A DNA stretch of 64,000 nucleotides from Stenotrophomonas sp. 169. GTDB lineage: Bacteria; Pseudomonadota; Gammaproteobacteria; Xanthomonadales; Xanthomonadaceae. Each line of letters starts with the position of its first letter. The first letter of the stretch is position 1. Positions 9,550 through 27,352 of this stretch are shown piece by piece. The position numbers and the translations under genes were made by a program. Location of the stretch: contig NZ_CP061204.1 in assembly GCF_014621775.1 (NCBI RefSeq), forward strand, positions 3,554,501-3,618,500, given 5' to 3'. The notes under the pieces are model-generated. The model had not been told where the DNA came from, searched no databases, and saw only the letters and a list, made by a program, of their open reading frames with translations.

Positions 9550-9929
9550 CAGACTACCGCCTTGTTGGAGCGCCCTATCGGAAGGGGCGAGTCAGGTCGT
9601 ACTGGAGCCCCGACCGCTTGCCGTAGGACGATGCAAGTGGACTTCGCTGGACGCCTGTAAACGTCAATGTCCCACCAGCAACCAAATAGAAAGCGCATCT
9701 TGTTGTTTCTACTTTAATATACATCCGCCAAATAGGAATTCGACTCACTTTCTGACTCACTTTTGAGTCAGAAAGGTTCGGACGTATGCGGACGATGCTG
9801 GACATTCTGGGCGCCAAGCGCCCGCAACCAAGTCCCTTCTCGCTGCGCGGTCTTGGATGCGCTTGGAGCACGCAGACGCAGGCTCGGCGGTTGCGACTAG
9901 CTTATGGCCTTGCCGCCCCCAGCTTCATA
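9550..9929. other. AT-richer island-end region without a clear gene
   Basis: About 380 bases, clearly richer in A/T than the flanks (for example 9690-9740). Short frames here lack ribosome sites. The notable content is the inverted repeat at 9748-9775 with TGACTCA motifs also present at the other end of the island. An eight-base CCCACCAG near 9670 matches part of the tRNA 3' end, too short to call an attachment site. Confidence 0.45.
9741..9775. repeat. Inverted repeat with GACTCA motifs, candidate integrase arm sites
   Basis: CTTTCTGACTCA (9748-9759) and TGAGTCAGAAAG (9764-9775) form a perfect 12-base inverted repeat around CTTT. The block contains one perfect TGACTCAC (9753-9760) and two 7-of-8 copies (9741-9748 and 9763-9770). 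The same octamer occurs four times beside the integrase at 27111-27174. Confidence 0.6.
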
Positions 9930-11415: not shown

Positions 11416-11445
11416 GTAGGCAAAACGAATGGCAGTGAGCGCTGG

Positions 11446-14160
11446 TCAGGCGTTGAGGAGGGAGGCAACTTTGCTGGCATCAGCATCCGTCGACTTCATC
11501 AGCATGTACTCCATGCCGCTGGCGACGGCGATTTGGTTGGCGAAGTCTTTCTTGGCTTGCACCACGGCATCGTCGATTTGGTAGTCGGCCTTCACTTCGA
11601 CGATGACGTACTTGGTACTGCCATCATCCTCGACACGCTCGAACAAGAAGTCCGGGTAATAGCTACGGACAGTGTGGCTAACCGGGTCGATGTACTGGAT
11701 GAAGAAGTCGGACTGCCCGTGGGTCAACATGCCGGTGAAATACACCTTCTTGACCTTGTTGCTGCGGATCAGCTCCCAAAACACCTTCTGCTCGGAGCCA
11801 GAGTCGAAACAGTAGGCATCCAGATGGAAGCTCTTGCCCTTGAACTCGTCGGTGACGTTGCTGTCGGCTTGCCGCACAATCTTGTCCTTAGCGGCATTGA
11901 CCTCATAGTAGCCCTGTGGTGGCAGCTTGATGAGCTCCACCTCGTGCTCCTCGGTTTCCTTTGTTTCGTCCAAGTCGTAGAGCAGCTTGAACAGACGCGG
12001 GATGATCTCGTCGTAGAGCAGCTCGTTGAACTCGTTGGTGATGGCGACTAGCTCCTCAGTGCCTTCCTTGGTGGAATCCAGCAGGTCTTCCACATCCAAC
12101 GGATTGCGGTTGAGGTAGCGAGCAATCTCCGCTACCAAGGTTAGCCGCGAGAACTCGCGCTTCTGGCGGCGGTTGGTCAGGTCGCGGGTTTCGATGTTGC
12201 CGGACTGCATGGCATCTTCGAGACTCAGACCCTCCTGCCGAATCTCCAACAGGTGGTATTTCTCAGTCAGATCTTTCCAGGCTTCTGCCTCCGACCGATC
12301 CATGCCTAGGGCGACGCCATGCGTTAGCGCCTTCTCAGTAACGTTGAACTGCTTGCGTACGCGCACCAGCTTGATCTGTACCGGCGGAAGCACAACCTTG
12401 ATCTTCACGCACTCCTTGTTGGTGTCCTTCTTCTGCAATTCGTCGGCGCTGACGCGGAAGTTCTGCAGCAGCTCTTCGTTGAGAATATTCAGGTTGTCCT
12501 TGGAGAGGAAGACGTGGCCGGTGTATTGGGCCTGACCGATTTGGCGAAGACAGCGCATGGTGGCTTGCAGAACGAAGACCTTGGACTTCGGTTGACGGAA
12601 CAATCCGACGCCGAACAGGGAACGGCAGTTCCAGCCTTCGCGGCCTTTGTTTACTAGCAAGATGAACTGCTTCTCGGAGCCTTCGGTGTCAAGTCTGTTG
12701 AACTCACGGATGTCGTCGTTTGAGGTGATCTTGTCGTCACCCACATTGACTAGGATGCGTGAGGTGGGGATGCCGTGCTTGATGAGCGCGGCCTCAACGG
12801 CAGGCTTCAGCTCGGCGGTCAGCTCGTCCACGGTGGCGGCGAAGAAGGCTAGTTTTGGGCGTAGGCCTTCGGGATTCAGGTCGGTGGTTTGCTTGAGAAA
12901 CTCCTCTATGGCGATGTCCACGAACTCGTCGGTACGAGTGTTGGTGTAGCCGTGCAGTTCGACATTCTTCAGAAATCCTTTGTCTATGGCTTTCTTCAGG
13001 CCATAGGCATACACCACTTCCGGCAGCACTTCGCGTCCGACATAGGGCGTGCCGGTGTAGTTGAAGCAGGCCACGACGTGCGTGCCGGTGTTCTTCAGAC
13101 TCTTGGCCAGCTCGTCGATCGTGGTGCGTAGGCTGGTGTCGGTTTCCTTCTGACCAACGCCCATGTCCTTGGCCAGGCTCTTGCCAAAGGCGTGGTGGGC
13201 CTCGTCCACATAGACGCCCAATTGCTCCAGCCGGCGAAGCTTCTCGAAACGCTGGTTGGTGGTCAGGTCGGCCTCGTCCTCGGGCTGGTCGAAGCCGTAG
13301 AGGTCGGCGTTATCGTCGTACACGGTAGACGGCGCGAGGACTTCCGCCGTAGCCCCGAACAGCTTATCGGTGGCATTCTTGTCCTTGTGCTGGCGCTTGA
13401 GAATGATCTTCTGTGTGTTGGAGACGATGATGTTGAACTTGGACTTGTCCATCGTGTCCAGCGAGGTGCCGGCTTCTTCCAGGTAGTGGAAGTGCAGGTT
13501 CACTGTCATCCACGCAACGTACTCCGGCGGCACAACCAGCGACAGGTCGAACCCTTCGATCTCCTTCAGCGATTGCAGCACCGTCTTGTCCGGGGCAAAC
13601 ACCAGTGCGTTGTGGCAGAAGTGGGCGTCCTTCGGGAATTTGTTGGCGAGCAGGAACTCGTAGAAGATGCACGTCGCCATCAGAATGGTTTTCCCCGTGC
13701 CCATTGTCAGAGCGAAGATATAGTTGGGGTACATCCGGCTGTTCTTGCGCATCCGGTCAAACAGGGTCTTGTACGAGGTCAGCTCCAGTTCATCCGAGTC
13801 GCCGAACTGGAACATCTCCTGCCCAGCAGTACCACGGAACGAGCCGAACAGGCGGCCTTCAAACTTGCCGCTGCGCTCATACCACGCCTTGAAGATTTCC
13901 TCGACCTTGGCGTTGCCCAGGAACTCTTTCAGGAGGACGTAGGTTTCCAAGGCTTCGAACTGCGGTTGGCGCAGGAAGGCCTTGGGGTTCTTCTCCGGGT
14001 CGTTGTGGTCGAGGAACTTGCGGGTCAGCTCGCGATAGTTCTGGCGGATCTTGCCCTTGTTGGCTTGGTAGAACTGCCACAGGAAACGGAAGAACGCGAA
14101 GTCGAGCGAGGCGGCCACGCTCGTCGTGGTTTCCTTGGCCTTGCGCGTGCCTTTAGCCAT
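11446..14160 (-). CDS. Type III-like restriction enzyme, Res helicase-nuclease subunit
   Basis: The 904-residue product is a DEAD/DEAH-type translocase. The Walker A motif is TMGTGKTIL (about residues 152-160), the Walker B/DEAH box is VYVDEAHHAF (about 317-326), and a motif III-like FNYTGTPY follows. At the C-terminus, YYPDFLFE (about 833) and YVIVEVKAD (about 850) form a PD-(D/E)XK nuclease core. In type III systems Res cuts DNA after ATP-driven communication between two target sites and needs Mod for recognition. Its start overlaps the end of the mod gene by eight bases, and the two share an operon with the helicase-nuclease at 16009. The family assignment is solid; true type III behaviour is inferred from pairing. 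Confidence 0.88.
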   Translation of the reverse strand: MAKGTRKAKETTTSVAASLDFAFFRFLWQFYQANKGKIRQNYRELTRKFLDHNDPEKNPKAFLRQPQFEALETYVLLKEFLGNAKVEEIFKAWYERSGKFEGRLFGSFRGTAGQEMFQFGDSDELELTSYKTLFDRMRKNSRMYPNYIFALTMGTGKTILMATCIFYEFLLANKFPKDAHFCHNALVFAPDKTVLQSLKEIEGFDLSLVVPPEYVAWMTVNLHFHYLEEAGTSLDTMDKSKFNIIVSNTQKIILKRQHKDKNATDKLFGATAEVLAPSTVYDDNADLYGFDQPEDEADLTTNQRFEKLRRLEQLGVYVDEAHHAFGKSLAKDMGVGQKETDTSLRTTIDELAKSLKNTGTHVVACFNYTGTPYVGREVLPEVVYAYGLKKAIDKGFLKNVELHGYTNTRTDEFVDIAIEEFLKQTTDLNPEGLRPKLAFFAATVDELTAELKPAVEAALIKHGIPTSRILVNVGDDKITSNDDIREFNRLDTEGSEKQFILLVNKGREGWNCRSLFGVGLFRQPKSKVFVLQATMRCLRQIGQAQYTGHVFLSKDNLNILNEELLQNFRVSADELQKKDTNKECVKIKVVLPPVQIKLVRVRKQFNVTEKALTHGVALGMDRSEAEAWKDLTEKYHLLEIRQEGLSLEDAMQSGNIETRDLTNRRQKREFSRLTLVAEIARYLNRNPLDVEDLLDSTKEGTEELVAITNEFNELLYDEIIPRLFKLLYDLDETKETEEHEVELIKLPPQGYYEVNAAKDKIVRQADSNVTDEFKGKSFHLDAYCFDSGSEQKVFWELIRSNKVKKVYFTGMLTHGQSDFFIQYIDPVSHTVRSYYPDFLFERVEDDGSTKYVIVEVKADYQIDDAVVQAKKDFANQIAVASGMEYMLMKSTDADASKVASLLNA

Positions 14161-16012
14161 TGTCGATGCTTCCTTCCCACGATTCGGACAGCAGGTCGGT
14201 GATCTTCACGCGGATGGTGCCCGCGTCGGCCGGCACTTTGTACTTGCCGGAGGCGAGCTCGTTCTTGTCCGGGATATCTACCTCAGCCGGTTGCAGCACC
14301 GCGCCGTCGTAGTTCCAGTCGATCAGCACGGATTCGACCAGCTCGCGCCAGTCGCCGGTCGATTCCTTCTGCAAGGACAGCTTTTGCAGCAAGTTCATCG
14401 GGTAAAACTTCTCGATGACCAGCTCGCCGTTCTTGATGATGACCTTGGCTTCGGAATCGCGCTTGAACTCAAGGTTGGACTTGTCGCGCAGGATGTCCAC
14501 CACTTGCACGTCGATCATGTAGGGCTTGGCGGCCAGCACCAGTTGCGCGGCCAGGTCGGGCTCGTGACCCATACAGACCAGCGTGACCTTTTCGACCGGG
14601 CGCGTGGGTGCTTCGGCCTTGCGACGTTCCCAGGCCTTGTAGTCGAAGCCGGCGATCAGCTCGTTTAGATCGGCGCGGGTGGCGATACGGTTGACCGGCA
14701 TGATCTTGATCATGCGGCCGTCCTTCTCGCCGTCGAACACTGTGCTGAACTCAAGCTTCTGAATCTCAAGTGCCTCGATCAAAAGGTCTATCGCTTGAGC
14801 GGGGTTGCGAAAAACGTCGTAGTGATTGACGTTGTAGACCTCAAATCCTGCTTGCGAGAACTCATCTTCATCAATGGAGTGCTGTTGACTCTCTTCCTGA
14901 ACTCTAAGAAGCCGTGCGGATGCCGTTTGAATGGAGCCGAGGTTGATATCTGCACCGATGAACCTTCTGCCCAGCTTCTTGGCAACGGCTTGTGTGGTCC
15001 CCGACCCCATAAAGCAATCAAAAACAAGCGCGCCCGGCTTAGTGGAGGCTGAGATTAGCTTGTAAAGGAGCTGCTCTGGCTTTTGAGTCGGGTAGTCAGT
15101 TCGGTTGTCTGAGGATTGATTTTCAATGTCAATGAAAAAATAGTCGTTAGCTACTTTGCCCTCACGCAAGTAGTCCCGAACTACCAATTCCGGATGCGAA
15201 ATTTCCCAATTTTGGTCAACATCCTTGGCGCCCTTAATTGGGCTTTCTTTGAGAAATCGACCGTTTAGCCGATATTTTCCGTTCTCGTCTTCCAGCCTAT
15301 ATTTCTTAATGGTGGCCTCGGACAGAGGCTCAATCACCATCCCATCATCCCAGTTATAGACTGGGTCTTTCCTCTTCTTGTAGAAATGAATGTCGTGATG
15401 ACTACGCTTCCACGAAGTTTTAATTGAGCTTCTGGTTCCAAACATCCAAACGATTGAATTGAGGAAGTTGTCCTTCCCAAAAACCTCATCCAAAAGACAG
15501 CGAAGCTCATGAGATTTCCGGTAATCGCAATGTAAATAGATTGCGCCCTCTTCGGAAAGCAGCTCTCTCAGCAGGATCAAACGCTCGAACATGAACTGGA
15601 GGTATTCATCATTACTCCAGATGTCCGTGTATTGTTTTTCCTCAAACGTCGTGTTGCTTGATTCGACATCCTTCTTTCTGACTTTTATTTTTTTCCGATA
15701 GTCAGCTTTCGAGTCGAACGGAGGATCGATGTAGATCAGATCGACCTTGCCGCGAAATTGCTTCAGCAGATGGCCCATCACCTGAAGGTTGTCACCCCAG
15801 AAAATCTTATTGCGCCAGCCGTCCACCTCCTCGCCGTGGACTTCCTTCAGCTGCGCCGGATAGAACTGCGTCGCTGTAAACGGACGCTTGCCGCGCCAGT
15901 TCAACATCGGATAGCCCTTGATCGGCTCGAACTCGTATTTCTCGACGTTAGTGCCGCCGTCCGGCGTGCCCAGTCCAAGATTGCCCTGCTCGGTGGTTGT
16001 TATCTTGCTCAT
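14153..16012 (-). CDS. Site-specific adenine DNA methyltransferase, type III Mod-like
   Basis: This protein should recognise the target sequence and methylate adenine N6. The catalytic motif IV is DPPFD (residues 96-100) and the SAM-binding motif FMGSGTT lies later (about 336-343), the order of beta-class enzymes to which Mod subunits belong. KKIKVRKKDVESSNTTFEEK, just after DPPF, probably belongs to the DNA-contact region. The ATG at 16012 overlaps the TGA of the upstream helicase gene (ATGA), showing translational coupling, and the stop overlaps the Res start. Length is 619 residues, normal for Mod. Nothing in the catalytic motifs is missing, so it may be active. Confidence 0.9.
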   Translation of the reverse strand: MSKITTTEQGNLGLGTPDGGTNVEKYEFEPIKGYPMLNWRGKRPFTATQFYPAQLKEVHGEEVDGWRNKIFWGDNLQVMGHLLKQFRGKVDLIYIDPPFDSKADYRKKIKVRKKDVESSNTTFEEKQYTDIWSNDEYLQFMFERLILLRELLSEEGAIYLHCDYRKSHELRCLLDEVFGKDNFLNSIVWMFGTRSSIKTSWKRSHHDIHFYKKRKDPVYNWDDGMVIEPLSEATIKKYRLEDENGKYRLNGRFLKESPIKGAKDVDQNWEISHPELVVRDYLREGKVANDYFFIDIENQSSDNRTDYPTQKPEQLLYKLISASTKPGALVFDCFMGSGTTQAVAKKLGRRFIGADINLGSIQTASARLLRVQEESQQHSIDEDEFSQAGFEVYNVNHYDVFRNPAQAIDLLIEALEIQKLEFSTVFDGEKDGRMIKIMPVNRIATRADLNELIAGFDYKAWERRKAEAPTRPVEKVTLVCMGHEPDLAAQLVLAAKPYMIDVQVVDILRDKSNLEFKRDSEAKVIIKNGELVIEKFYPMNLLQKLSLQKESTGDWRELVESVLIDWNYDGAVLQPAEVDIPDKNELASGKYKVPADAGTIRVKITDLLSESWEGSIDNG

Positions 16013-18933
16013 GTTCCCGTCTTCCTGAATTTCCAATTCTTGTTGTCGCAATAGGCCCGCATGTCGCACTCGACGCATAACTTGGCCGGCCGCGCCGCCA
16101 TCTGATAGTCCTGCCGCTCGATGCGTGCCACGATGTCGTCAAACCGCGCGATGGTCTTGCCGATGGCGCGGTCGTCCTTTGGGAAGGAGACGTAAGGGTT
16201 GCCGCCTTCTTCGCCGGTGTAATAAAGGTGCATCCGGCTGACCTTCTGTCCGGTGCGCTCCTCGACCAGATGGGCGTACACCTCCAACTGGCTCTGGTAT
16301 TGCTTCAGCCGTTCCTTGTCCCTCTCCATGTCGGGCTTCTTCTCCGACTTGAAGTCGATGATCTCGACCGTATCGTTCTCGCCTCGGATCAAGTCCACGC
16401 TTCCCTTGAGAATGTAGCTGTCCTTGACCAGCGAAATCTCGACCTCGGCCTCCCTGATCCTGTCCCAGTGGCCCTTCTCGCGCTCGAAGTAGCGCAGGAT
16501 GTGGTTCAGTGCCGCCCGCTGCGAACCAGTTGCCAGGTAGACACGCTCCTTCTTCGAGAGCGTGGCGTAGTTTGCCGAAAACCAGCTTTCGATAATGCCC
16601 GCATTCAGCGCAGCCTGCTCGCCGCGCAACACAGTCTTGTGGATGTCCTCGATGGTTTGGTGTACCAACGTACCGAACAGGATCTGGCTCTCGCGGATAG
16701 GCGCGAAGTCCAGCTCTTTAAAGAAACGGTATTGCTCGGCGCAGTTCTCGAACACAGTGATGTGCGAGGTGAAGGAATACTCGCGCTTGAGGTTGATCTC
16801 TTTTACCGACTCGTAGTCGAGACCCCCCAGGTCCACGTCCCCCCACTTCGGCAACGCATCAAACATGCACTCGAAATACTTCGACGGAGCACGGCGCTGG
16901 CCCTTGCCTTCGCGCTGCTGAGCGGCCAGCACCAACAGGTTCTGCGCCCGCGAGAAGGCGGTGTAGAACAGCCGCCAAAAATCGAAGGTCTTGATGCGTT
17001 CCAGCGGCTCGAAGGTTGCCTTGGACAAGTAGCCGCCTTCTTCCAGCAGCACATCCATATCGCGATGCTGCTTGCGTGGCGTAGATTCCATCGACCCGCA
17101 CACCACCACCGGAAATTCCAGTCCCTTGGCCTGGTGGATGGTCAAGAAGCTCACGCAGCCCTTGGGCGCGTAGTCGGCCACGTCCTCGTATTCGCCGATG
17201 CCGCCGTCCTTGAGGAAGCGGAAATACTGGTTGAACAGGGCGATCAGGTTCCGATCCAGCCACTCCGGGTTCAACACGCTGACGTGATGCAGATATTCGA
17301 ATTTTGTCAACAGGCTGGAGAAGCTGGCAAGGTTGCGCGCCGCACGGCCCTTGTCCACGCCTTGCGTGGCCTCCTCGCCCAGATAGCGGGCGAACAGCGG
17401 AAACTGCAACAACTGGTAGAACAGCCCGGAGAAGGCGTAGTCCGTACTCTGCGTCAACACGATGTGGCGCTTCGCGATCGGACGTGCCCATTCCAACAGC
17501 GCCTTGTTCTCCGGCTTGCGCAGTTCGTCGGTGAAGGGCTTGTAGCACTGGTGGTCGAAGTAGCCCCAGATCGGCAGGGTCGCACCCTCGGCCCACACCC
17601 GCACCTTGGAGTACTGCGGAAACAGGAAGATCAGCGCACCGATCATCAGCCGCACTTCTTCGCGCTCGAAGAACATATTGGACCGCGGCGAATACACCGG
17701 CACACCTGCGCTTTCGAGGAATCGCGCCAAGTCCTGCGCCCGATCGCTCTTGACCGACTGGTAGAGGAAGGCAACCTGGTTCCAGTCGGTCAGCTTGCCG
17801 GCCTCTTTCAGCGCATTGAGGAAAGCCAGCACTTCGCCGTACCAGTTGGCACTGTCGCCCACAGGGTCGGATGCCCTCAGCTTGAGGACGGCCGGCACTT
17901 CCGCGAACTCAGCCTCACGCGGCAGGATCTGCTTGTCGTAGCGGAACTGACGTTCGCCATCGCCCCACGCCTGCTCGCGCATCCACTCGTTGTAGAAGCG
18001 GATGATGTCCGGGTGTGATCTGTAGTTGACCGCCAGCCTGACCTGCTTGCACTTGCCCTCTGCAAACAGCTTGGGGAATTCGAGGATGTTGCGAATGGTC
18101 GCGCCACGGAAGCGGTACAAGCCTTGGTCGTCGTCGCCAACCACACACAGGTTCTGTTTCTCGCCAGCCAGCAGCAACAACAGCCGCTCCTGAATGGTGT
18201 TGGTGTCCTGATACTCGTCCACCATCAGGTAGGACAGCTTGGCGCGCACAGCCTCCAATACGTGCGGATGCTGTTCCAGCAGTTTCAGCGCTTCGAACTG
18301 GATGCCGGAGAAGTCCAGCGCATTGTTCTCGGCCAGCATTTCCTGATAACGGCGGAACAGCAGCCCCAGCGCCTTCACCTCAACTTCCGGAGCCTCTGCC
18401 AGCGCGTCCGAGTCCAGTGGTTCCTCGCTGACCTTGTTGAGCCAGTGCAACAGGTTCTCGGACTGGTTCCAGCGGCCAATGCCGTCGTCGCCCATGACCA
18501 GATTGGCGTCCGCGATGGCGCGGAACTCCTTGATGCGTTGATACAGGAAGTATTGCTGGTCGAATTGGTCGAACAGGGTGAAGCTCCGCTTGAGGCGGGT
18601 GTATTCCTGATGCTCTTCCAGAAGCCGCAGACAGATGGAGTGGAAGGTGCCGAGGTACATCTCGTTCAGATTGAACTTGATGTCCATTTCGGCCAGTCGG
18701 TTTGAGATACGGGTGGTCAGCTCCCGCGCCGCCTTGTCGGTGAAGGTGACGACCAGCAGCGATTCGGGGGCTACCCCCTTCTGGGTGATGAGATAGACGA
18801 TGCGTTCGACCAAGGTAAAGCTCTTGCCCGACCCTGGCCCCGCTATGATGAGCACCGGGCCTTCCGTAGTCAGGATGGCTTCCCGCTGCCGCGGGTTGGC
18901 CTTGCTCAACAGTGTCGCCTCGTCCCCCGGCAT
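16009..18933 (-). CDS. UvrD-type helicase fused to an Fe-S PD-(D/E)XK nuclease
   Basis: The N-terminal two thirds form an SF1 helicase: Walker A GPGSGKS (residues 32-38), VTFTDKAARELTTR, VDEYQDTN, VVGDDDQGLYRFRGA and, later, LTIHQAKGLEFPVVV. The C-terminal part carries a RecB/Cas4-type nuclease core (GSVDLIRG, then EIIDFKSEKK near residue 861) and Cys residues 953, 956 and 962 plus an upstream Cys in FENCAEQY (about 731), the spacing of AddB/Cas4 iron-sulfur clusters. It should unwind and degrade DNA. The start at 18933 is chosen because AAGGGG lies six bases before it; the ATG at 18939 would touch that site. It is the first gene of the operon with Mod and Res. Confidence 0.88.
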   Translation of the reverse strand: MPGDEATLLSKANPRQREAILTTEGPVLIIAGPGSGKSFTLVERIVYLITQKGVAPESLLVVTFTDKAARELTTRISNRLAEMDIKFNLNEMYLGTFHSICLRLLEEHQEYTRLKRSFTLFDQFDQQYFLYQRIKEFRAIADANLVMGDDGIGRWNQSENLLHWLNKVSEEPLDSDALAEAPEVEVKALGLLFRRYQEMLAENNALDFSGIQFEALKLLEQHPHVLEAVRAKLSYLMVDEYQDTNTIQERLLLLLAGEKQNLCVVGDDDQGLYRFRGATIRNILEFPKLFAEGKCKQVRLAVNYRSHPDIIRFYNEWMREQAWGDGERQFRYDKQILPREAEFAEVPAVLKLRASDPVGDSANWYGEVLAFLNALKEAGKLTDWNQVAFLYQSVKSDRAQDLARFLESAGVPVYSPRSNMFFEREEVRLMIGALIFLFPQYSKVRVWAEGATLPIWGYFDHQCYKPFTDELRKPENKALLEWARPIAKRHIVLTQSTDYAFSGLFYQLLQFPLFARYLGEEATQGVDKGRAARNLASFSSLLTKFEYLHHVSVLNPEWLDRNLIALFNQYFRFLKDGGIGEYEDVADYAPKGCVSFLTIHQAKGLEFPVVVCGSMESTPRKQHRDMDVLLEEGGYLSKATFEPLERIKTFDFWRLFYTAFSRAQNLLVLAAQQREGKGQRRAPSKYFECMFDALPKWGDVDLGGLDYESVKEINLKREYSFTSHITVFENCAEQYRFFKELDFAPIRESQILFGTLVHQTIEDIHKTVLRGEQAALNAGIIESWFSANYATLSKKERVYLATGSQRAALNHILRYFEREKGHWDRIREAEVEISLVKDSYILKGSVDLIRGENDTVEIIDFKSEKKPDMERDKERLKQYQSQLEVYAHLVEERTGQKVSRMHLYYTGEEGGNPYVSFPKDDRAIGKTIARFDDIVARIERQDYQMAARPAKLCVECDMRAYCDNKNWKFRKTGT

Positions 18934-19111
18934 CCCCATCCCCTTGATTTTCCTAAAAACCCCGCTGGCAAGACTTTTTCGCCCTTCATGCGGAAACTGC
19001 TGCCGATCTACCCTTCTGTGGCCCTCAATGGTCGCATGATATGGCGAGAATGGGTAATGTTCAGCTACCTTGACGGGCGGCAGAACGGGAACGGATTTTA
19101 GGGGGAAGACG

Positions 19112-22100
19112 GTGGCATCAGATTACGAGGAAATTTGCCGGCAGAACCGCGAGGACTACGGCAAGAAGGGGGCGAAAAAGTCCGGCGACCTAGCTGCCGG
19201 CCTTTACGATGACGAAACCCATTTCATCTACGAGTTGCTCCAAAACACCGAGGACGCGCTCAAGCGCCGTGACGAGGGCTGGAAGGGCTCCCGGCAGATC
19301 AACTTCATCCTGGACGATATCCGGCTGGTGCTGTCCCACTACGGCCACCCGTTCACAGAGAACGACGTGCGCAGCGTGTGTGACATCTCCGAAAGCACCA
19401 AGGACGAGAGCTCGATTGGCCGTTTCGGGCTGGGCTTCAAGTCGGTTTACAAGGTTTCGGACTTGCCAGAGATCCATTCCGGCGACGAAGACTTCGTCAT
19501 CGAGGAATACCTGTTCCCCAAACAGGCCGAGCGGACGCGCCGCGATGCCGACGAAACCCAGATCCTCCTTCCGCTGAAGGCGGATTCCGCCAAGTTCAAG
19601 GCGCGTATCGGTGCAGGCCTCAAGGCGCTAGGGGCGAGCTCCTTGCTGTTCCTACGTCACATCCGGGAAATTTCCTGGCGCATCGAGGGCGGCGCATCGG
19701 GCTTGTACTTGCGTGACGATCCTGAAGTGTTGGGCAACAACGTCAGCCGGATCAAGCTGATCGGCCAAGCCACCGGCCAAGCGGACATCGACCAAGATTG
19801 GCTGGTGTTCCACCGGGACGTGGGCAAAGGCCGCGTCGAACTGGCCTTCTCGGTCATCACCGACAAAGACGACAAATCCAAGTGGGGTGTGCAACCACTA
19901 CCGGCATCGCCCTTGGTGGTGTTCTTTCCGACGGCTTACCAAACCAACCTCGGCTTCTACCTGCAAGGCCCGTTCCAGAGCACGCCCAGCCGCGACAACA
20001 TTCGAAACGATGAGCCTTGGAATCACCGGCTGATTGCTGAAGCTGCGTCCCTGCTGGTCGAAGCGATGACTTGGCTGCGCGACAACAACCGATTGGACGT
20101 GAATGCTTTGCGCTGTCTGCCGCTGGACAGAGTCAAATTCCCCGATGGCAGGCTGTTCTCGCCGATGTTTGAGGCGACGCTGGAAGCCTTCAAGGCACAG
20201 CCCTTCTTGCCGAACAACGATGGCGGCTATTCGCTTGCCGAAGAATCGAAACTAGCTGATTCAGCAGGATTGGCCGAACTTTTCAGTAGCGATCAGATCT
20301 CAGCATTGTACGAAATCGAGAATACTCATTGGCTCACTGGGAAAATCACAGATAGGCGCACGGCAGATATCTGGAACTACCTGACTAAAGAGCTTGGAGT
20401 CAAGGAAGTTCGCCCCCGCGACATCTTCCCGACGTTGACCAAGCAATTCCTTGAGGCGCAATCCGATGAGTGGATTGCTGGCATGTACGAGTTCTTGAAG
20501 GATCAGGGAACAGTCAAGTCGCTACTGTCTAACACACCCATCGTCCGACTCGAGAATGGCTCGCACGTATCAGGTAAAACACCCGGAGGCGAGCCTCGGG
20601 CCTTCCTGCCGACAGGATCCCCCACTGGCTTTCCTACGGTTCTGGCTTCAGTTTGCCAATCCGAAGATGCTATCGAATTCCTAAAAGCCCTTGGCATCGG
20701 CGAACCTGATCCAGTTGACGACGTAATCCGAAATATCTTGCCGAAATACGAAGCCGAAACCATTGAGATCGACGATGAGGCGTATGCTTCAGACATCGGA
20801 AAGATTGCATCCGCGTACCAAATGGCGGACTCCACAATCAAGAAATCCCAGCTCGTTGAGCGACTGAAGCGAACTTCGTTCTTGATGGTAGTAGATTGCG
20901 GCGATGGCAACGGGTACAGAGGACTCCCTGGCAATACCTACATAGCCACGGATCGCATGAAGCGGCTCTTTTCAGGGGCCGTAGGTATCTTCGTGGTGGA
21001 TGACGACTACGATTGCTTGCGAGGTGAAGACGTTCGCAACGTTCTGGTCGCGTCAGGAGCATCGCGCTATCTGCGTCCGAAGGAAATCAGGAATTCGTTG
21101 GATTTCACCAAGCGCCGTGAATTGCAGATTGCATCCGGTTATCCAGCATCAACCTGGCGCACGGACAAAGATCAGGACTGGGTAATCGAGGGGCTTGATC
21201 AGATTGTTGCGCTTCTTCCGACGCTCCCAGCAGATGAGTGCATCGCGCGTGCGAAATTAATCTGGGAAACGCTGGAGGAGCTTGAATCCAATGCTGCCAA
21301 GCACTTCTTTACTGGCACCTATTGGTGGACAAATAGAGCCCCCTATCATGCGAACTTCCCGCCTTCCTTCGTTCGACTTCTGACGGAATCCTCCTGGATT
21401 CCCGACAGCAAGGGCGAGCTCTATCAGCCGAAGAACATCGCCTTCGAGGCAACGGGCTGGAAAGCCAATCCCTTCCTGCAATCCAAGATCATCTTTAGAC
21501 CCGACCTCATTGACCAATTGGCGGAAGAAATCGGCATTGATCCAGGTGAACTGAATTTACTGCTTAAACTGAAACGACAAGGAATTTCCCTTGCATCGCT
21601 GGTGGATGACAGCCTAGACGCTGCAACGTCTCCTGAGGGCCGCCCTGCGCCACAAGCACCTGACGCACCTGCGCCCGCCACTGCTGATGATCCTGACCGT
21701 CCTGCGCCAGGAGATTCCGTCTATGACAAGAACATCGACTTGTACGGGCCTGATGTGCCTGAAATCCCCGAAGGCACTTACGATCCGGACAGCGGCGATG
21801 CTGAAGCCGATCGCCCCACGCATCCCATCAACGAAGGTGCTGGCCGCGGCGCATCGCCGGGCGGCGATAGCCGCTCAGATGGGAATGGAGGTTATCACCC
21901 CGGTACGCCTTCTGGTGGCGGCCCGCCCTTCGGCACGCGAGAGCATGGCAAGCGCACTCCCGGCAGTTTGGGCGGTCGGCGTTTCATCTCCTACGTCGGC
22001 ACTCGTCCCGATGAGGCAGAAGACGATCCTGATGGACTCGACCAGTCGCAACGCATGAGTATCGAAGCCGAGGCAATCAAGCACATCATCGAAGCAGAGC

Positions 22101-22423
22101 CGCACCTGCACAAAACAGAAGCCGGCAACCCCGGCTTTGACCTGCTGGAGAAGGATGCCAGCAATCTGCCCGTTCGCTGGATAGAGATCAAAGCGATGAC
22201 CGAATCACTTGAGCATCGCCCGGTCACGTTGTCCCACACTCAGTTCAAGCACGCCCTCCAAAAGCAGAACAGGTATTGGCTGTACGTTGTCGAATTCGCT
22301 ACGGTCCCGGAACAACGCCGCATCCTGCGCATCCAGAACCCGGCGGGCAATGCCAAGTCCTTCACCTTCGACAAGGGTTGGAAGCACATCGCACTGACCA
22401 ATCCGCCCACCGAGGGCGCGTGA
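19112..22423 (+). CDS. Sacsin-like HSP90-type ATPase with C-terminal DUF3883 domain
   Basis: The N-terminus has GHKL ATPase motifs: ELLQNTEDA (residues 41-49, with the Mg-binding Asn) and GRFGLGFKSVY (about 103-113), the arrangement of sacsin-type HSP90-like domains. A long middle region lacks recognised motifs. A low-complexity Pro/Gly/Asp-rich linker (about residues 830-970) leads to a DUF3883 domain: GNPGFDLLEKD, then WIEIKAM, and QNRYWLYVVEF, which fits a PD-(D/E)XK-like fold. The GTG at 19112 is chosen because AGGGGG lies just upstream. It is divergent from the helicase-Mod-Res operon, with about 180 bases between. Such proteins occur in defence islands; the precise role here is inference. 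Confidence 0.8.
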   Translation: MASDYEEICRQNREDYGKKGAKKSGDLAAGLYDDETHFIYELLQNTEDALKRRDEGWKGSRQINFILDDIRLVLSHYGHPFTENDVRSVCDISESTKDESSIGRFGLGFKSVYKVSDLPEIHSGDEDFVIEEYLFPKQAERTRRDADETQILLPLKADSAKFKARIGAGLKALGASSLLFLRHIREISWRIEGGASGLYLRDDPEVLGNNVSRIKLIGQATGQADIDQDWLVFHRDVGKGRVELAFSVITDKDDKSKWGVQPLPASPLVVFFPTAYQTNLGFYLQGPFQSTPSRDNIRNDEPWNHRLIAEAASLLVEAMTWLRDNNRLDVNALRCLPLDRVKFPDGRLFSPMFEATLEAFKAQPFLPNNDGGYSLAEESKLADSAGLAELFSSDQISALYEIENTHWLTGKITDRRTADIWNYLTKELGVKEVRPRDIFPTLTKQFLEAQSDEWIAGMYEFLKDQGTVKSLLSNTPIVRLENGSHVSGKTPGGEPRAFLPTGSPTGFPTVLASVCQSEDAIEFLKALGIGEPDPVDDVIRNILPKYEAETIEIDDEAYASDIGKIASAYQMADSTIKKSQLVERLKRTSFLMVVDCGDGNGYRGLPGNTYIATDRMKRLFSGAVGIFVVDDDYDCLRGEDVRNVLVASGASRYLRPKEIRNSLDFTKRRELQIASGYPASTWRTDKDQDWVIEGLDQIVALLPTLPADECIARAKLIWETLEELESNAAKHFFTGTYWWTNRAPYHANFPPSFVRLLTESSWIPDSKGELYQPKNIAFEATGWKANPFLQSKIIFRPDLIDQLAEEIGIDPGELNLLLKLKRQGISLASLVDDSLDAATSPEGRPAPQAPDAPAPATADDPDRPAPGDSVYDKNIDLYGPDVPEIPEGTYDPDSGDAEADRPTHPINEGAGRGASPGGDSRSDGNGGYHPGTPSGGGPPFGTREHGKRTPGSLGGRRFISYVGTRPDEAEDDPDGLDQSQRMSIEAEAIKHIIEAEPHLHKTEAGNPGFDLLEKDASNLPVRWIEIKAMTESLEHRPVTLSHTQFKHALQKQNRYWLYVVEFATVPEQRRILRIQNPAGNAKSFTFDKGWKHIALTNPPTEGA

Positions 22424-22424
22424 C

Positions 22425-22616
22425 ATGCCGACAACTTCCGCCGAACTGCTCAAGTCCCGCCACCGCTTGATCCGCGACGGACAACCCGAGACTCTGCGTC
22501 TACGCATCCACGCTGCCGGGCCTTGTGCGAAGTACCAAAGATTGTCGGGTGTCAGTCGTAGGGATCGACCATGCCACCGCATCGACTGCAGGCCGCGCTT
22601 GTGGTGCATCTCATGA
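22425..22616 (+). pseudogene. Truncated 5' end of a possible HEPN-family gene
   Basis: The ATG follows the sacsin gene's stop by one base, as in a coupled operon. The first 28 or so residues (MPTTSAELLKSRHRLIRDGQ, then PETLRLRIH) resemble the conserved beginning of a HEPN-like protein that normally continues into a SWL-RAE segment. Here the sequence changes abruptly after LRLRIH at about 22512 to an unrelated, Cys/Arg-rich translation lying antisense to the small gene at 22552. The simplest reading is a deletion or insertion joint that removed most of the gene. The HEPN link is from memory of similar sequences and is tentative. Confidence 0.4.
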
Positions 22617-22680
22617 CACCGGCCAGCACGGCCGTGGCCACGACCATCACGCAGTAAATCAGCTCGACCTTGCTCTTCAT
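22552..22680 (-). CDS. Small membrane protein with a CxxC motif, 42 aa
   Basis: An ATG at 22680 (or two codons earlier at 22686, which has GGGGAG eight bases upstream) opens a 42-residue frame: a hydrophobic helix (VELIYCVMVVATAVLAGVM) and a short tail with CTTSAACSRCGGMVDPYD. The CSRCGG pair could bind metal or form a disulfide. It overlaps the truncated HEPN-like remnant on the other strand. The composition is good for a real small protein, but there is no homologue that I recognise. Confidence 0.45.
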   Translation of the reverse strand: MKSKVELIYCVMVVATAVLAGVMRCTTSAACSRCGGMVDPYD

Positions 22681-22759
22681 CCTCATCCGCTCCCCTGTGG
22701 GGCGCTACCCGCGCAGCGCCGTGCGCGAAGCCAGAACCGACCAGCTTCAAGGAGGTAGT

Positions 22760-22822
22760 ATGGTTTTGAAACTAAGTTCAATCGCGAATCCGGCGACTAA
22801 CTACCTGCAGTCTAGAAACTGA
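22760..22822 (+). CDS. Short ORF with perfect ribosome site, 20 aa
   Basis: AAGGAGGT is followed five bases later by ATG, an ideal initiation site. The frame encodes MVLKLSSIANPATNYLQSRN and stops at 22820-22822, overlapping the last codons of the convergent TcmP gene. It is either a genuine tiny peptide or the preserved start of a gene whose remainder was lost when the TcmP cassette arrived. The strong initiation site is seen; the rest is inference. Confidence 0.4.
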   Translation: MVLKLSSIANPATNYLQSRN

Positions 22823-24080
22823 AGACTCGCTGGTTGGCCGTAGTCAGAACATCGCGACCACCAATTGTGCTGGCGCGAAGCCTTCGCGCCCCTGTTGAGG
22901 AAGTAATGACAATCTCCTTGTACGACACCAACTGTTCCAGCGCCATTCTGTACTTTGCGCTGTCCGCTGGAGAACTATTGCAGTGGCTGGAAAAAAGTTC
23001 CCCAAAGGAGATGCCATCGGGACGCGCATGGACCAAGGGCGATATCTGATTGACTAGGGCATTGACGGTGGCATCACCGGCAGCACCGTCAAAACAGAAG
23101 CCAAGCTCGTTCTGGCCTGTGAAGGACTGATCATCACGGGTGCTGTATCCCAACGCACGGAACATATCCAGCCCCGCGCCGCCGTAGTGGATGAAGTGGT
23201 TGTTCTTGTTCCAGTGAACGGTGGTCATGACATCGCGGGCGCGCGGATGCTGCGACAGATGTACTAGCCAGTAATCTCCATGCCCGGTGGTGCGAATAAA
23301 GAAGACAGTAAAGAACTTGGCACCGCAGCGCTCAACCAAACCCTGGTATAGGCAACTTTGGATGTAGAGCCTGACATCCCTCTCGTTCCGCTTGATGTCT
23401 TCGAAAGTTCGCCCCTTGAGGACGTCTGGAAGGTCAAGCTTCTCAAGTTTTCGTTGTGTCGCCGCGGAGTCGCTGGCAAAGTTGATGAAGGCATCCACAG
23501 CGAAGGTCAGGATTACCTCGGCGGTAGGTAGCGTCTGGAAGATCGACCGAATTTGCGACGTCGGAACCTGCGCATAGCCGTACTGATCGAGCAGGAAGAT
23601 GGAGCGCCCCTTTCGCGGGCTCTTCTGCCCGACGAACCCCATGATCTGTTCAACGTTTTTCTCGAACGTACCGTGGATGAGATGGATATCCTTGCCGACA
23701 CTGTCACCATAACCATGCTCGGTCAACTCTGACGCCAGGAGCTTATGGGCGCTACGGTTCCTCTCGACGAAGAAGTAATCCAGATTCCAATGCAGGGGCT
23801 TATTCCGGCCCAGAGCGACCAGTGCCTGAGCTTCCTTCGCAGCTTCGAGAAATACGAAGGGTGATCCCAGGACGAGTTCACGAGTGTCTTCGTGGATGTA
23901 AATTCCACCGCCCGCGAAGCCATCAACCAGTGTGACCGTCAGAACATCCTGAGCAGGTGAGACGACAAGGGTCTGAAGGTAAGCGACCAGATACTCTCGC
24001 AGCACCTCATGCTTGGCGATACTGTGTTGCTGGATCGTGGCAGGCTTCCCTTCGTCCCAGCGATACTGAGAAATTGCCAT
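22812..24080 (-). CDS. Three-Cys-motif partner protein, TcmP type 1, 422 aa
   Basis: The product matches the TcmP family pattern: WDEGKPATIQQHSIAKHEVL at the N-terminus, a Rossmann-like glycine motif TLVDGFAGGGIY (about residues 50-60) that resembles the SAM-binding loop of methyltransferases, and FLLDQYGYA (about 160-168) in the place of a catalytic DPPY-type motif. TcmP proteins are named for sitting beside proteins with a CX6CX2C motif, exactly as here. A GGGAGG site overlaps the stop of the upstream DUF5131 gene, nine bases before this start, so the genes are co-translated. Activity is unknown; the methyltransferase-like fold is my reading of the motifs. Confidence 0.78.
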   Translation of the reverse strand: MAISQYRWDEGKPATIQQHSIAKHEVLREYLVAYLQTLVVSPAQDVLTVTLVDGFAGGGIYIHEDTRELVLGSPFVFLEAAKEAQALVALGRNKPLHWNLDYFFVERNRSAHKLLASELTEHGYGDSVGKDIHLIHGTFEKNVEQIMGFVGQKSPRKGRSIFLLDQYGYAQVPTSQIRSIFQTLPTAEVILTFAVDAFINFASDSAATQRKLEKLDLPDVLKGRTFEDIKRNERDVRLYIQSCLYQGLVERCGAKFFTVFFIRTTGHGDYWLVHLSQHPRARDVMTTVHWNKNNHFIHYGGAGLDMFRALGYSTRDDQSFTGQNELGFCFDGAAGDATVNALVNQISPLVHARPDGISFGELFSSHCNSSPADSAKYRMALEQLVSYKEIVITSSTGARRLRASTIGGRDVLTTANQRVFSF

Positions 24081-24089
24081 CGTGCCTCC

Positions 24090-24833
24090 CTACATTGGAG
24101 CGTGCGCTGGCATTTCGTCCCAGGTACGGCCGTTGAGCAGCCTTCCGTTCTTGGCCTTGGCTCGGCGTTTGCCATCCGCCCCCCAGCCGCCCCACTGCTT
24201 GAAGAAGAAGGCCACCCCCTGCTCCTCGCACTGGATGCGAACCACATCGGCCCACTCTGGTTTCATTGGGCGCGCCTTAGGACCTGATTCGCCACCTACA
24301 ATGACCCAATGGATGTCGTCCAAATCCAGCACACCGACATCCTCCAGCAGGGGCTCCACTGACAGGAATCGGATCCGCGCGTCAACCGAACGAAGGTAGT
24401 CAATGCGCGGCACGCCATGGCGACGGTTCTCCACAGACACTCCGAGCCACACGTTCTCGGGCACCGGGCGGGCCTTGAAGTATCTCGCCATGCGAGCCGC
24501 ACGCTTGGTTAGGATCTGATAGCTGTGCCAATGGGTGCGCGTAATCACGTCCATCACCTGATCGATATAGTCCACAGGGACCTTTTCGTGGAAGAGGTCG
24601 GACATCGAGTTGACGAAGTAGATTGTCGGCTTCTTGCGCTTGAGCGGGTCGCTGAGGCGCTCGGGAATAAGCCGCAGGGCGAAGCCGTTCTCATAGCCCG
24701 GGGTGCCCATGGCTTGGAGGCGACGGGCCATGAGCTCGGCATAGCAGTGCTTGCACCCCGCGGATATCTTCGTGCAGCCCACAATGGGGTTCCACGTTTG
24801 CTCGGTCCATTCGATGCGGGAAGACGTAGTCAT
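24090..24833 (-). CDS. Three-Cys-motif protein, DUF5131 / phage Gp37-Gp68 family, 247 aa
   Basis: The N-terminal IEWTEQTWNPIVGCTKISAG, followed by CKHCYAE, contains Cys20, Cys27 and Cys30, a CX6CX2C motif that gives the TcmP partner its name and resembles a variant radical-SAM cluster site. SMSDLFHEKVP, TKRAARM, VWLGVSVEN and VIVGGESGPKARPM are the further conserved blocks of the DUF5131 family, which is common in phages. The start at 24833 (MTTSSRIEW) has a GGAGAG site; the open frame upstream is unlikely to be translated. It lies between two different TcmP genes on the same strand. Chemistry is unproven. Confidence 0.8.
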   Translation of the reverse strand: MTTSSRIEWTEQTWNPIVGCTKISAGCKHCYAELMARRLQAMGTPGYENGFALRLIPERLSDPLKRKKPTIYFVNSMSDLFHEKVPVDYIDQVMDVITRTHWHSYQILTKRAARMARYFKARPVPENVWLGVSVENRRHGVPRIDYLRSVDARIRFLSVEPLLEDVGVLDLDDIHWVIVGGESGPKARPMKPEWADVVRIQCEEQGVAFFFKQWGGWGADGKRRAKAKNGRLLNGRTWDEMPAHAPM

Positions 24834-24959
24834 AACTGGACTCTCCGGTTGGCGAATATTACTCGCAACTTGGGTACGACGGGGATCGGCGCCAGCTGGT
24901 ACGCCTTGCGGCAGGAGCAACAACGACCGCAAGTTGCACCCGAACTGACGAAAACGGAT

Positions 24960-25793
24960 CTAAAAATCAAAGCGATGCTGAGCAGTCACATTGCTGACCT
25001 TTCCCCAGAAGGCCTGGCCCAAGGCGCTTTTCGATGCCAGCACAAGCCAGTACAGCGGCTGATTCTTGGAGCCCGACACGAGCTCGACATTGTCGCTCAC
25101 GTCCTGATAGCCCAACTTCTTGATCAGCCCGCACCAATGCCGAAAGACAGCCAGCACGGCAACATCGTTTCGCACGGCGGGATCCACGTGATCACGCCAG
25201 CCTGGTGCAAACACGTCCAGCTTCCCATTCGACATTAGCTGCTTGACGTTACGCTGCATGTCCATCGCACTGAAATGAATCAGCAGATCCATTTTGGGCA
25301 GCTCTGCCAAGGTCTGAATGACCTCGAATGGCAGAGCTTGGACACTGTAGGGATCCAGAAACGCAAAATGCAGTCCTGAAGGCGATAGCTTTGAGACGAC
25401 CTGTCGTGCTGTCTCCTCTGCCTTCCCGATGTATGTGGAAATCGGCCCTAGTCCTTCGCCGTTCAGTCGGTCCCGGCAGGCACTGACGTTGACAGCATCA
25501 AGGTCGGCGATATGAATCGCTCCAAATGAGGCGTGTCGCGCTGCCTCGGCGCAGGCCGCGATCGCACTGCCAGGGATAACTTCGCCCGTATCCTTGACGG
25601 CAGCCCGACCCGGCCCGCAGTACAGGTCAGTAAAGGTCGAATTGCGGCCAAACTTCCGCCTGGCGGCTCGACTGATATCCACGTAATGACGCAGGCGCAG
25701 ATGCTTCTCCTGCGCCCAACCACCGACGATCTCACGCCGACTGCCGTCGACCGGATCTATGTCGTAACGTTCTTCCGGCCGCTTTGTCGGCAT
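24960..25793 (-). CDS. Three-Cys-motif partner protein, TcmP type 2, 277 aa
   Basis: A second, clearly different TcmP-like protein. WAQEKHLRLRHYVDISRAAR is followed by TFTDLYCGPGRA (about residues 53-64), a SAM-loop-like motif, and HFAFLDPYSVQALPFEVI (about 143-160), where LDPYS takes the place of a methyltransferase DPPY motif. NQPLYWLVLASK near the C-terminus is a typical closing block. The ATG at 25793 is preceded by GGGAGAGG. It is first in the presumed operon, 126 bases before the DUF5131 gene, and about 100 bases from the end of the broken integrase. Confidence 0.75.
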   Translation of the reverse strand: MPTKRPEERYDIDPVDGSRREIVGGWAQEKHLRLRHYVDISRAARRKFGRNSTFTDLYCGPGRAAVKDTGEVIPGSAIAACAEAARHASFGAIHIADLDAVNVSACRDRLNGEGLGPISTYIGKAEETARQVVSKLSPSGLHFAFLDPYSVQALPFEVIQTLAELPKMDLLIHFSAMDMQRNVKQLMSNGKLDVFAPGWRDHVDPAVRNDVAVLAVFRHWCGLIKKLGYQDVSDNVELVSGSKNQPLYWLVLASKSALGQAFWGKVSNVTAQHRFDF

Positions 25794-25894
25794 GGACGTT
25801 CCTCTCCCACTAGAGGCGTGCGCTGGTCGCGGAGCCAGCCTACCGCATGTCTGGCCAAGAATGGGCCGCGTTGAGTCGGGAGTTGCGCCCCGCC

Positions 25895-27110
25895 CTAACC
25901 AGCCTTTCGCTTGATCGAAACGACCTTTTCCAGGCTTTCTCGAAGCTGATCAAGGTAGTTGGCCCACGCCTGCATCATCTTCTTTCGCTCAGCCAAGTGC
26001 GCGGTACGGCTGTAGGCACGCCCAAGCGGATCCCTGACCGCATGCGCCAGTTGATGCTCGATGTAGTCCGGCCGGAATCCCAATACCTCGTCCAGGACCG
26101 TTCTCGCCATGACCCTAAAGCCGTGACCAGTAATAGCGTCGCTATCGAAGCCAAGTTTCCGCAACGCCGCATTGATCGTGTTCTCACTCATCGGGCGGCT
26201 CGAACTTCTAACCCCCGGAAAGACAAATTCGCTCCGACGGGTGAGAGGCCTCAGGTCCTCGAAGATCTCTTTCGCCTGGGACGAGAGGGGCACGATGTGT
26301 GGGGTTCCTGTCTTGCTGGCCACAAAACGCCACTCTGCCTTCTCAAGATCGACATCCTCCCACCGAGCCTTTCGCAATTCCCCGGGCCGCACGAAGAGCA
26401 TCGGTCCAAGCTTCAGCGCCGCCAAGGTCACGGGCGATCCCTGTTAGGAATACATTGCCCGTAACAGATCGCTGATCTGGGCAGGATCGGTCATGCTGGC
26501 GAAGTGCTTGGTCTTGGGTTGCTCCAGCGCTCCGATCAAGCTTTCGGCTGGATTTGATGTCGCCCGTCCAGTGGCAATCGCATAACGAAACACACGACTA
26601 GCAAGCGAGCGCGTCCTGTGCGCTGTCTCGGCAACGCCGCGCTTCTCCATCTTGCGCAACGCCGCCAGCAGCACCGGCGCCGTCACATCAGTGATCGGGA
26701 TATCGCCGATGCTCGCTAGGTCCTTTTCGATAAGGCGGCGCTCGCGCTTTACCGACCCGGGAGTCAGGCCCTCCTTGGTTCGCTTCTCCAGCAGTTCAAT
26801 GGCGATCGCGCTGACGGTGGATTCAGCTCGCTCGGTCTGCGCGGCGCGCTCGATACGAGCCACCTGGGCTGGGTTGGCTCCGCCCTTAACCAATGCCCGT
26901 AACCGGTCCCGCTCGGCTCGCGCCTCGCTGAGCGACATGATCGGATACTCGGCCAGCGTAATCATGCTTGCCTTGCCCGAGTGCCGATAGCGATAGCCGC
27001 CACACCTTCGCCCCGGACGGTCGCACTTCGATGCATAGGCCATTTGTGTCGGCGACACGGTAGGCGTCTTCACGTGGTTTCAGGGAGCACAGCTTGGTAT
27101 CGGTCAGCAT
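25895..27110 (-). pseudogene. P4-type tyrosine integrase, inactivated
   Basis: The intact protein would recombine island DNA into the adjacent tRNA. The N-terminal arm (MLTDTKLCSLKPREDAYRVA) and later blocks are typical of P4-type integrases, and the catalytic HxxR (GHGFR), a preceding Arg (RPGELR) and the Tyr (GRAYSRT) all remain. Two lesions break it: one extra base near 27000, after GAKVWRL, shifts the frame, with the reading resumed as YRYRHSGKASM; and a TAA at 26444-26446 replaces what should be a Tyr codon in MYS-stop-QGSPVTLAALK. The ATG at 27110 is chosen because the upstream in-frame codons overlap repeated GTGAGTCA sites. Without correction the island cannot use it. Confidence 0.85.
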
Positions 27111-27174
27111 GTGAGTCAGGTGATTGTGAGTCATCGAGCATAGCCCACGCCCGTTGACTCACAGCCTGACTCAC
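27111..27174. promoter_or_regulatory. Four GTGAGTCA/TGACTCAC octamers, candidate integrase arm sites
   Basis: Perfect octamers occur at 27111-27118 and 27126-27133 (GTGAGTCA) and at 27155-27162 and 27167-27174 (TGACTCAC), forming an inverted arrangement between the integrase start and the tRNA. The same motif occurs near the other island end at 9741-9770. This is what arm-type binding sites of a tyrosine integrase look like; a regulatory operator for the integrase is the alternative. Confidence 0.6.
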
Positions 27175-27276
27175 TTCCGCCCCGGATTTAAGTGGACCAA
27201 CTTGGACCATGGCGCACAAAACCCCCGAATTTAGCGGGAATCTACGGACTAATTCGGACTGCCTTGGATTGCTAAG

Positions 27277-27352
27277 TGGTGGGCCCACCAGGATTCGAAC
27301 CTGGAACCAAAGGATTATGAGTCCTCTGCTCTAACCGTTGAGCTATAGGCCC
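27277..27352 (-). tRNA. tRNA with CAU anticodon, probably tRNA-Ile2
   Basis: A full cloverleaf reads on the minus strand: acceptor GGGCCTA with TGGGCCC, D arm GCTC/GAGC, anticodon stem around CTCATAA, T arm CCAGG-TTCGAAT-CCTGG and an encoded CCA. The anticodon is CAT (plus-strand 27317-27319). CAT serves initiator Met, elongator Met or lysidine-modified Ile2. The location close to rpoD matches the Ile2 gene of other gammaproteobacteria, so Ile2 is favoured, but Met cannot be excluded by eye. Its 3' end is the island insertion side. Confidence 0.92.

What the first reader, a model, noticed from the sequence alone, without database searches (positions are those of the whole stretch)
22812..25793. 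A TcmP - DUF5131 - TcmP cassette of unknown function
Seen: three same-strand genes, with a CX6CX2C protein (Cys20, 27, 30) between two clearly different TcmP-like proteins. Both TcmPs have a SAM-loop-like glycine motif (DGFAGGG; DLYCGPG) and a DPPY-like position (LDQYG; LDPYS). Known: TcmP and DUF5131/Gp37 genes are named for occurring together and are common in phages and islands, without a proven role. Inferred: a methyltransferase-like pair with a radical-SAM-like Cys protein could modify nucleic acid or a small molecule, as defence or anti-defence. The doubled TcmP is unusual and suggests a heteromeric enzyme.
Basis: partly seen in the sequence, partly recalled or inferred. Interest (0 to 1): 0.78.

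Follow-up and report, generated by a model that had tools for sequence, protein, structure and literature searches.

The report
Radical-SAM enzyme with two methyltransferase-like partners
Three neighbouring genes in a bacterial genomic island encode what looks like a radical enzyme shaped like a DNA-repair lyase plus two different methyltransferase-like helpers, a combination that evolution seems to have put together more than once and that may repair or modify DNA under stress or phage attack.

The parts
24960..25793 (-). TcmP2: short TcmP (277 aa), methyltransferase-like partner, motif I DLYCGPG, motif IV LDPY; first gene of the trio
   Evidence: (TIGR04474 148.1 bits); no structure model made
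24090..24833 (-). DUF5131 (247 aa from the conserved ATG): CX6CX2C radical-SAM-like core, fold closest to spore photoproduct lyase
22812..24080 (-). TcmP1: long TcmP (422 aa), RlmJ-like methyltransferase fold plus C-terminal GMT-like winged helix (residues 311-397)
25895..27073 (-). tyrosine integrase next to the trio, in two pieces in one reading frame (26444-27073 and 25895-26431) parted by an in-frame stop
27277..27352 (-). tRNA-Met, presumed attachment site of the island (no second exact copy of 14 nt or more found in the window)
9000..27276 (.). approximate low-GC island (about 52-60% against about 62-71% outside, 2-kb windows) carrying the trio and other defence-type genes; left end not located

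Best explanation
The trio is a mobile enzyme system acting on nucleic acid, most likely DNA under damage stress. DUF5131 is the catalyst: a radical-SAM barrel that uses C20, C27 and C30 to hold a [4Fe-4S] cluster and cleave SAM, as spore photoproduct lyase does when it opens a thymine lesion. The TcmPs are RlmJ-like methyltransferase-fold proteins that bind nucleic acid (TcmP1 also by a winged helix), present the substrate base and may methylate it. In a normal pair one TcmP serves one DUF5131. In the trio two TcmPs of separate lineages share one conserved DUF5131, which would give the same chemistry two targets. Shown by computation: folds of DUF5131 and TcmP1, motif conservation, co-occurrence, more than one place of the trio on the trees, SOS genes near some relatives. 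Inferred: cluster binding, nucleic-acid substrate, complex formation, repair as the purpose, and that TcmP2 has the TcmP1 fold.
Against: No sequence kinship of DUF5131 to SplB-like proteins was found (hhalign 0.3%), and its CX6CX2C differs from the CX3CX2C of those proteins. The fold also fits viperin and RlmN, so the substrate is not fixed. 13 of 16 trio loci examined have no Imu genes in the fetched flank, and the window shows no SOS link: no match to TTAGN6TACTA with up to 1 mismatch (consensus recalled) and no sigma-70-like promoter match in 22400-27300. Neighbours of trios also include restriction and defence genes. The rate difference may only mean that the core is buried, and the 0.91 correlation is inflated by shared ancestry. 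That BCG_2748c, reported with a TcmP domain, is Rv2735c, and that Rv2734 is DUF5131, is recalled. TcmP2 was not modelled, and the RlmJ profile comparison is weak (50% for TcmP2, 12% for TcmP1). Changes on the trees may be gains or losses.
Confidence: 0.45

Rival explanations
1. Defence modification: DUF5131 and the TcmPs install or remove an unusual base modification to tell self from phage DNA or to attack modified phage DNA. Repair-gene neighbours are then incidental, and S24 repressors act as prophage-style switches.
For: PADLOC lists TcmP+DUF5131 as candidates PDC-M30 and PDC-M41 (model names). The window island holds a sacsin/NOV_C protein scored as TmtA and a helicase-nuclease, methyltransferase and TnsA-like set. 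Neighbours of trios include matches to pAgo, Gabija, DrmD, type III and IIG R-M models. Pairs sit in viral contigs; in a Gordonia phage a DUF5131 gene and a gene annotated methyltransferase lie beside the immunity repressor. PDC-M30 was predicted in 32 P. aeruginosa strains, 68.8% of them phage-resistant (PMC10855318 passage).
Against: Defence models match one or two neighbours each in the part of the list shown, as expected of any cargo of a defence island. It does not explain the recA-recX and Imu links. No phage test of the pair was seen in the papers listed or read.
Confidence: 0.3
2. RNA modification: a radical-SAM modifier of RNA bases (RlmN-like) with RlmJ-like helpers that acts on rRNA or tRNA under stress.
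Against: SPL stands 2.8 Z units above RlmN. The recurrent neighbours seen are DNA-repair, restriction and mobile genes; the only RNA-modification families among the 25 shown per scan are Sua5/YrdC domains in 2 of 119 pair neighbours.
Confidence: 0.14
3. Viperin-like antiviral: DUF5131 makes a chain-terminating nucleotide analogue.
Confidence: 0.06
4. Chance neighbourhood: two unrelated TcmP-DUF5131 remnants side by side.
For: The trio is rare: two TcmPs within 3 kb in 2 of 299 genomes of the order.
Against: Same order and strand in ten loci including the window, other orders elsewhere; all three reading frames open here.
Confidence: 0.03

Closest known systems
TcmP + DUF5131 (Gp37/Gp68) pair; PADLOC candidates PDC-M30 and PDC-M41
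   Same: Same two families side by side; DUF5131 scores 372.7-375 bits with the two PDC B models
   Different: Here two TcmPs of separate lineages share one DUF5131. PADLOC lists A and B components (seen as model names only); function unproven.
Spore photoproduct lyase (SPL, PF20903)
   Same: Best-matching solved fold of DUF5131; radical-SAM barrel; SplB-like genes are reported with SOS genes (PMC3765255 and PMC3323433, passages)
   Different: No detectable sequence kinship, CX6CX2C instead of CX3CX2C, 247 residues, dedicated TcmP partner
RlmJ, 23S rRNA m6A2030 methyltransferase
   Different: DQY or DPY/DPF instead of DPPY at the catalytic motif; TcmP1 has a winged helix; beside DUF5131 in nearly every locus read
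Radical SAM mobile pair protein A (TIGR04471)
   Same: DUF5131 of the window scores 84.6 bits
   Different: Far below that model's cut-off of 355 bits

Membership tests
Three-Cys-motif partner TcmP (TIGR04474) | score over the curated cut-off of 53 bits | tested here: met
   TcmP1 215.9, TcmP2 148.1 bits
DUF5131 (PF07505) | score over the gathering cut-off of 28.9 bits | tested here: met
   362.8 bits
Radical SAM superfamily | barrel fold of the radical-SAM type | tested here: met
Radical SAM superfamily | three conserved cysteines as cluster ligands | tested here: met
   C20, C27, C30 in 72 of 72 rows; ligand role itself inferred
Radical SAM superfamily | [4Fe-4S] cluster and reductive SAM cleavage | not testable with these tools
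   needs purified protein
Spore photoproduct lyase | SPL sequence family (PF20903) or detectable profile kinship | tested here: not met
   only DUF5131 in the Pfam scan; hhalign with 12 SPL-like proteins 0.3%
Spore photoproduct lyase | CX3CX2C cluster motif | tested here: not met
   CX6CX2C
Spore photoproduct lyase | cleaves spore photoproduct | not testable with these tools
   assay needed
RlmJ | RlmJ fold | tested here: met
RlmJ | DPPY catalytic motif | tested here: not met
   TcmP1: Q after the Asp in 46 of 49 rows; TcmP2: DP then Y or F in 66 of 66
PADLOC PDC-M30 / PDC-M41 | A and B component models matched in adjacent genes | tested here: met
   both TcmPs hit A models, DUF5131 hits B models at E <= 0.001; PADLOC's own system rules and cut-offs not run
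Radical SAM mobile pair protein A (TIGR04471) | score over the cut-off of 355 bits | tested here: not met
   84.6 bits

The most novel reading that the evidence does not exclude
A new kind of direct-reversal or base-editing DNA repair spread on mobile elements: a spore-photoproduct-lyase-like radical enzyme whose lesion recognition is outsourced to exchangeable RlmJ-like methyltransferase-fold subunits, two of which share one catalytic core in the trio, and which some hosts place under LexA-type control.
Probability: 0.33. Interest if true: 0.85.

Novelty: new variant of a known kind. Interest (0 to 1): 0.62.

Why it matters
DUF5131 is widespread on mobile elements (399 of 72,556 plasmid records and 159 of 50,697 phage records hold a match), and no function for it or for TcmP was seen in the paper searches run here. 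A fold match to spore photoproduct lyase plus SOS neighbours turns an unexplained pair into a testable repair or modification enzyme. If it repairs DNA, mobile elements would be spreading a damage-reversal enzyme. If it modifies DNA, it would be a radical-SAM-based defence. The trio suggests how the pair is built: one conserved core with exchangeable partners.

Tried and rejected
Sequence searches of the PDB (TcmP1 and DUF5131 alone, profiles of all three) found nothing meaningful. A thymidine-hypermodification lead from memory found no fitting paper. No LexA box of the recalled type in the window. No repeat of the tRNA-Met stretch of 14 nt or more elsewhere in the window. Flank searches in 25 congeners gave no empty site: the right flank matched none of them along its length and the left flank matched 5 in part. 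No match to TcmP2 in the phage records; in IMG/VR only pairs, no trio. DUF5131 against SplB-like profiles: nothing. The plain Foldseek search was never accepted; only the VIA-align second look was used. Chance neighbourhood disfavoured.

Rows dropped before counts: the neighbour scans used 102 of 154 listed ORFs for trio loci and 235 of 338 for pair loci. The dropped ones were mostly short ORFs, a few longer ones, and all neighbours of L073, L074 and L141-L143. Gene calls there were my own ORF heuristic. Each scan shows only the 25 most matched families. The 20 class regions fetched were 20 of 30 DUF5131 places outside the own genome. The distance correlations used 8 of the 10 same-order trio loci, without L009 and L154. 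The RlmJ-like profile used the 5 of 13 candidate ORFs that hold DPPY. L012 and L154 are identical in DUF5131 and TcmP1 and may be one genome counted twice.

Full report
What is there. Three genes run on the minus strand: TcmP2 (24960-25793), DUF5131 (24090-24833 from the ATG that most homologues share) and TcmP1 (22812-24080). Nine bases part DUF5131 and TcmP1; 126 part TcmP2 and DUF5131. Upstream lies a tyrosine integrase in two pieces, in the same frame with one stop between them, next to a tRNA-Met. The stretch from about 9 to 27 kb is lower in GC than its surroundings. It also carries a UvrD-PDDEXK protein, an N6/N4 DNA methyltransferase and a TnsA-like/ResIII protein (a similar set is on Nitrosomonas plasmids), and on the other strand a sacsin/NO-VEIN protein that PADLOC models call TmtA. 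The nearest named relative of TcmP2 is from Stenotrophomonas maltophilia, 94% identical. In the genus 3 of 91 genomes, the own one included, have DUF5131; in the other two the 3.7-kb loci show TcmP2 and DUF5131 only. So this is a patchy cassette in an island.

Is the trio real? TcmP and DUF5131 go together: DUF5131 lies within 1.5 kb in 73 of 80 TcmP2-anchored loci (of the seven misses L080 and L082 lie at a contig end). It is beside TcmP in 17 of 17 other genomes of a class sample of 274 that have an over-cut-off TcmP and in 37 of 38 viral-contig loci. From the DUF5131 side, 17 of 20 fetched class regions have a TcmP that my profiles see. Over 123 loci read in one script, pairs dominate (T2>D> 38, D>T2< 25, D>T1> 14, T1>D> 9, D>T2> 6), and trios with both TcmP types number 18: T2>D>T1> 10 (window included), D>T1<T2> 5, T2<D>T1> 2, D>T1>T2> 1 (L012 and L154 may be one genome twice). 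Of the 80 TcmP2 loci 13 are trios, and one more (L006) is cut by its contig end. In broader samples the trio is rare: two TcmPs within 3 kb in 2 of 299 genomes of the order (G000, G539; G579 has a split second TcmP far off on the same contig) and only in the window's own genome among 274 of the class.

Where did the trio come from? On a tree of 118 DUF5131 rows the trios lie in three separate places; the label needs 4 changes, one due to the cut locus L006. The window's clade is nested among DUF5131-TcmP1 pairs (L153, L155, L141). Its TcmP2 lies beside TcmP2-DUF5131 pairs of other Lysobacteraceae and a Rhizobium MAG. The simplest account is that in this lineage a second partner was added to an existing pair, and that the same composition was reached elsewhere with other DUF5131 lineages and gene orders; changes on a tree may also be losses. 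That argues for a working set. Both TcmP types also persist alone with a DUF5131, so each is probably a complete partner.

Context in relatives. A Burkholderia glumae plasmid has the trio beside ImuA, a Y-family DNA polymerase gene and DnaE2. Searching 106 loci with those proteins, all three recur within 7 kb of the trio loci L009 (S24 gene, ImuA, ImuB, DnaE2, a DUF3800 gene, then TcmP2) and L068; a DnaE2 piece lies at a contig end near the pair L022. That is 3 of 106 loci with the full set, the query locus included, all trios; 13 of 16 trio loci have none. An S24-type repressor, LexA-like or in L020 CI-like, is the direct neighbour in 5 of 106 loci (L020, L022, L078, L141, L193; four of them also seeded the profile). 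As a rough yardstick, 20 class genomes of about 60 Mb in all held 39 S24 matches, so about 0.14 would be expected within 1 kb of 106 loci. L022, L078 and L193 have the repressor facing TcmP across one promoter region with the palindrome CGAACGATCGTTCG (one mismatch in L193) just after TACGATACC; of 205 loci only L017, L022 and L078 hold the exact palindrome. Literature passages add that mycobacterial Rv2735c is co-transcribed with recA-recX (PMC3062782), that Rv2734, Rv2735c, recX and recA form one cluster of genes changed by mitomycin C (PMC5057432), and that BCG_2748c is reported with a TcmP domain (PMC7387457). The equations BCG_2748c = Rv2735c and Rv2734 = DUF5131 are recalled, not tested. 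SplB-like radical-SAM genes are themselves reported with SOS genes (PMC3765255, PMC3323433, passages).

Against a pure repair reading. Most trio loci have no SOS gene in the fetched flank. Pair neighbours scanned (235 of 338 listed) gave Peptidase_S24 in 6, but also MmeI-type, Eco57I-type and ResIII genes, SIR2 and STALD. Trio neighbours (102 of 154) matched DrmD, mad2, pAgo, Gabija and type III or IIG restriction models, one or two each, along with IMS, DnaE-type and one photolyase domain. Pairs sit in viral contigs. One survey predicts PDC-M30 in 32 P. aeruginosa strains of which 68.8% were phage-resistant (PMC10855318, one passage), a correlation only.

How it most likely works. DUF5131 generates a 5'-deoxyadenosyl radical and works on a base, as SPL does; TcmP delivers the nucleic acid. 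In eight trio loci DUF5131 is strongly conserved (mean difference 14%) while the TcmPs differ by 38% and 40% and in step with each other (r 0.91; 0.68 and 0.56 with DUF5131). A conserved catalyst with fast-evolving recognition partners fits this, though a buried core and shared ancestry would do part of it. Two partners on one core would give two targets, for instance two lesions or two sequence or structure contexts. I put the damage-linked version at 0.45, defence modification at 0.30 and RNA modification at 0.14.

Novelty. The pair is known by name and as a PADLOC candidate. Searches of the open library for DUF5131, Gp37/Gp68 wordings, PF07505, TcmP, three-Cys-motif and PDC names showed no functional study (one search listed 20 of 394 papers, most with another meaning of TCMP); preprints and most subscription journals are not held. 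New here, as far as those searches go, are the SPL-like fold of DUF5131 standing clear of other radical-SAM families, the RlmJ fold of TcmP1, the recurrent trio, and the LexA/Imu neighbourhoods. DUF5131 is not filed as an SPL: the sequence and motif tests failed.

Noticed in passing
window 25895-27073 (-): The island's tyrosine integrase is interrupted by one in-frame stop between two pieces that match neighbouring parts of one integrase model; the island may no longer be able to move by itself.
   Followed up: partly
window 11446-18939 (-): UvrD-PDDEXK, N6/N4 DNA methyltransferase and TnsA-like/ResIII genes: stretches of this set match Nitrosomonas plasmids at about 78-80% DNA identity; looks like a restriction-type defence operon.
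   Followed up: no
window 19070-22423 (+): Sacsin-type ATPase with a NO-VEIN C-terminal domain, scored as TmtA by PADLOC models.
   Followed up: no
L022 1770-1783, L078 3354-3367, L193 7763-7776: Shared palindromic operator (one mismatch in L193) between a LexA-like S24 gene and a TcmP-DUF5131 pair in three different loci.
   Followed up: yes
L152 2333-4555: dTMP kinase and a 499-aa radical-SAM gene directly beside the trio on a Burkholderia glumae plasmid.
   Followed up: no
L218-L255: In viral contigs TcmP2 and DUF5131 are convergent in most loci, a few bases apart, some at a contig end: a cargo-gene layout as in prophages.
   Followed up: partly
G579:C1:4624334-4625192: A second TcmP in that genome is split over two pieces.
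   Followed up: no
window 8980-9549 (-): Small DUF4224 protein near the left side of the low-GC stretch, a type often seen beside integrases (recalled).
   Followed up: no
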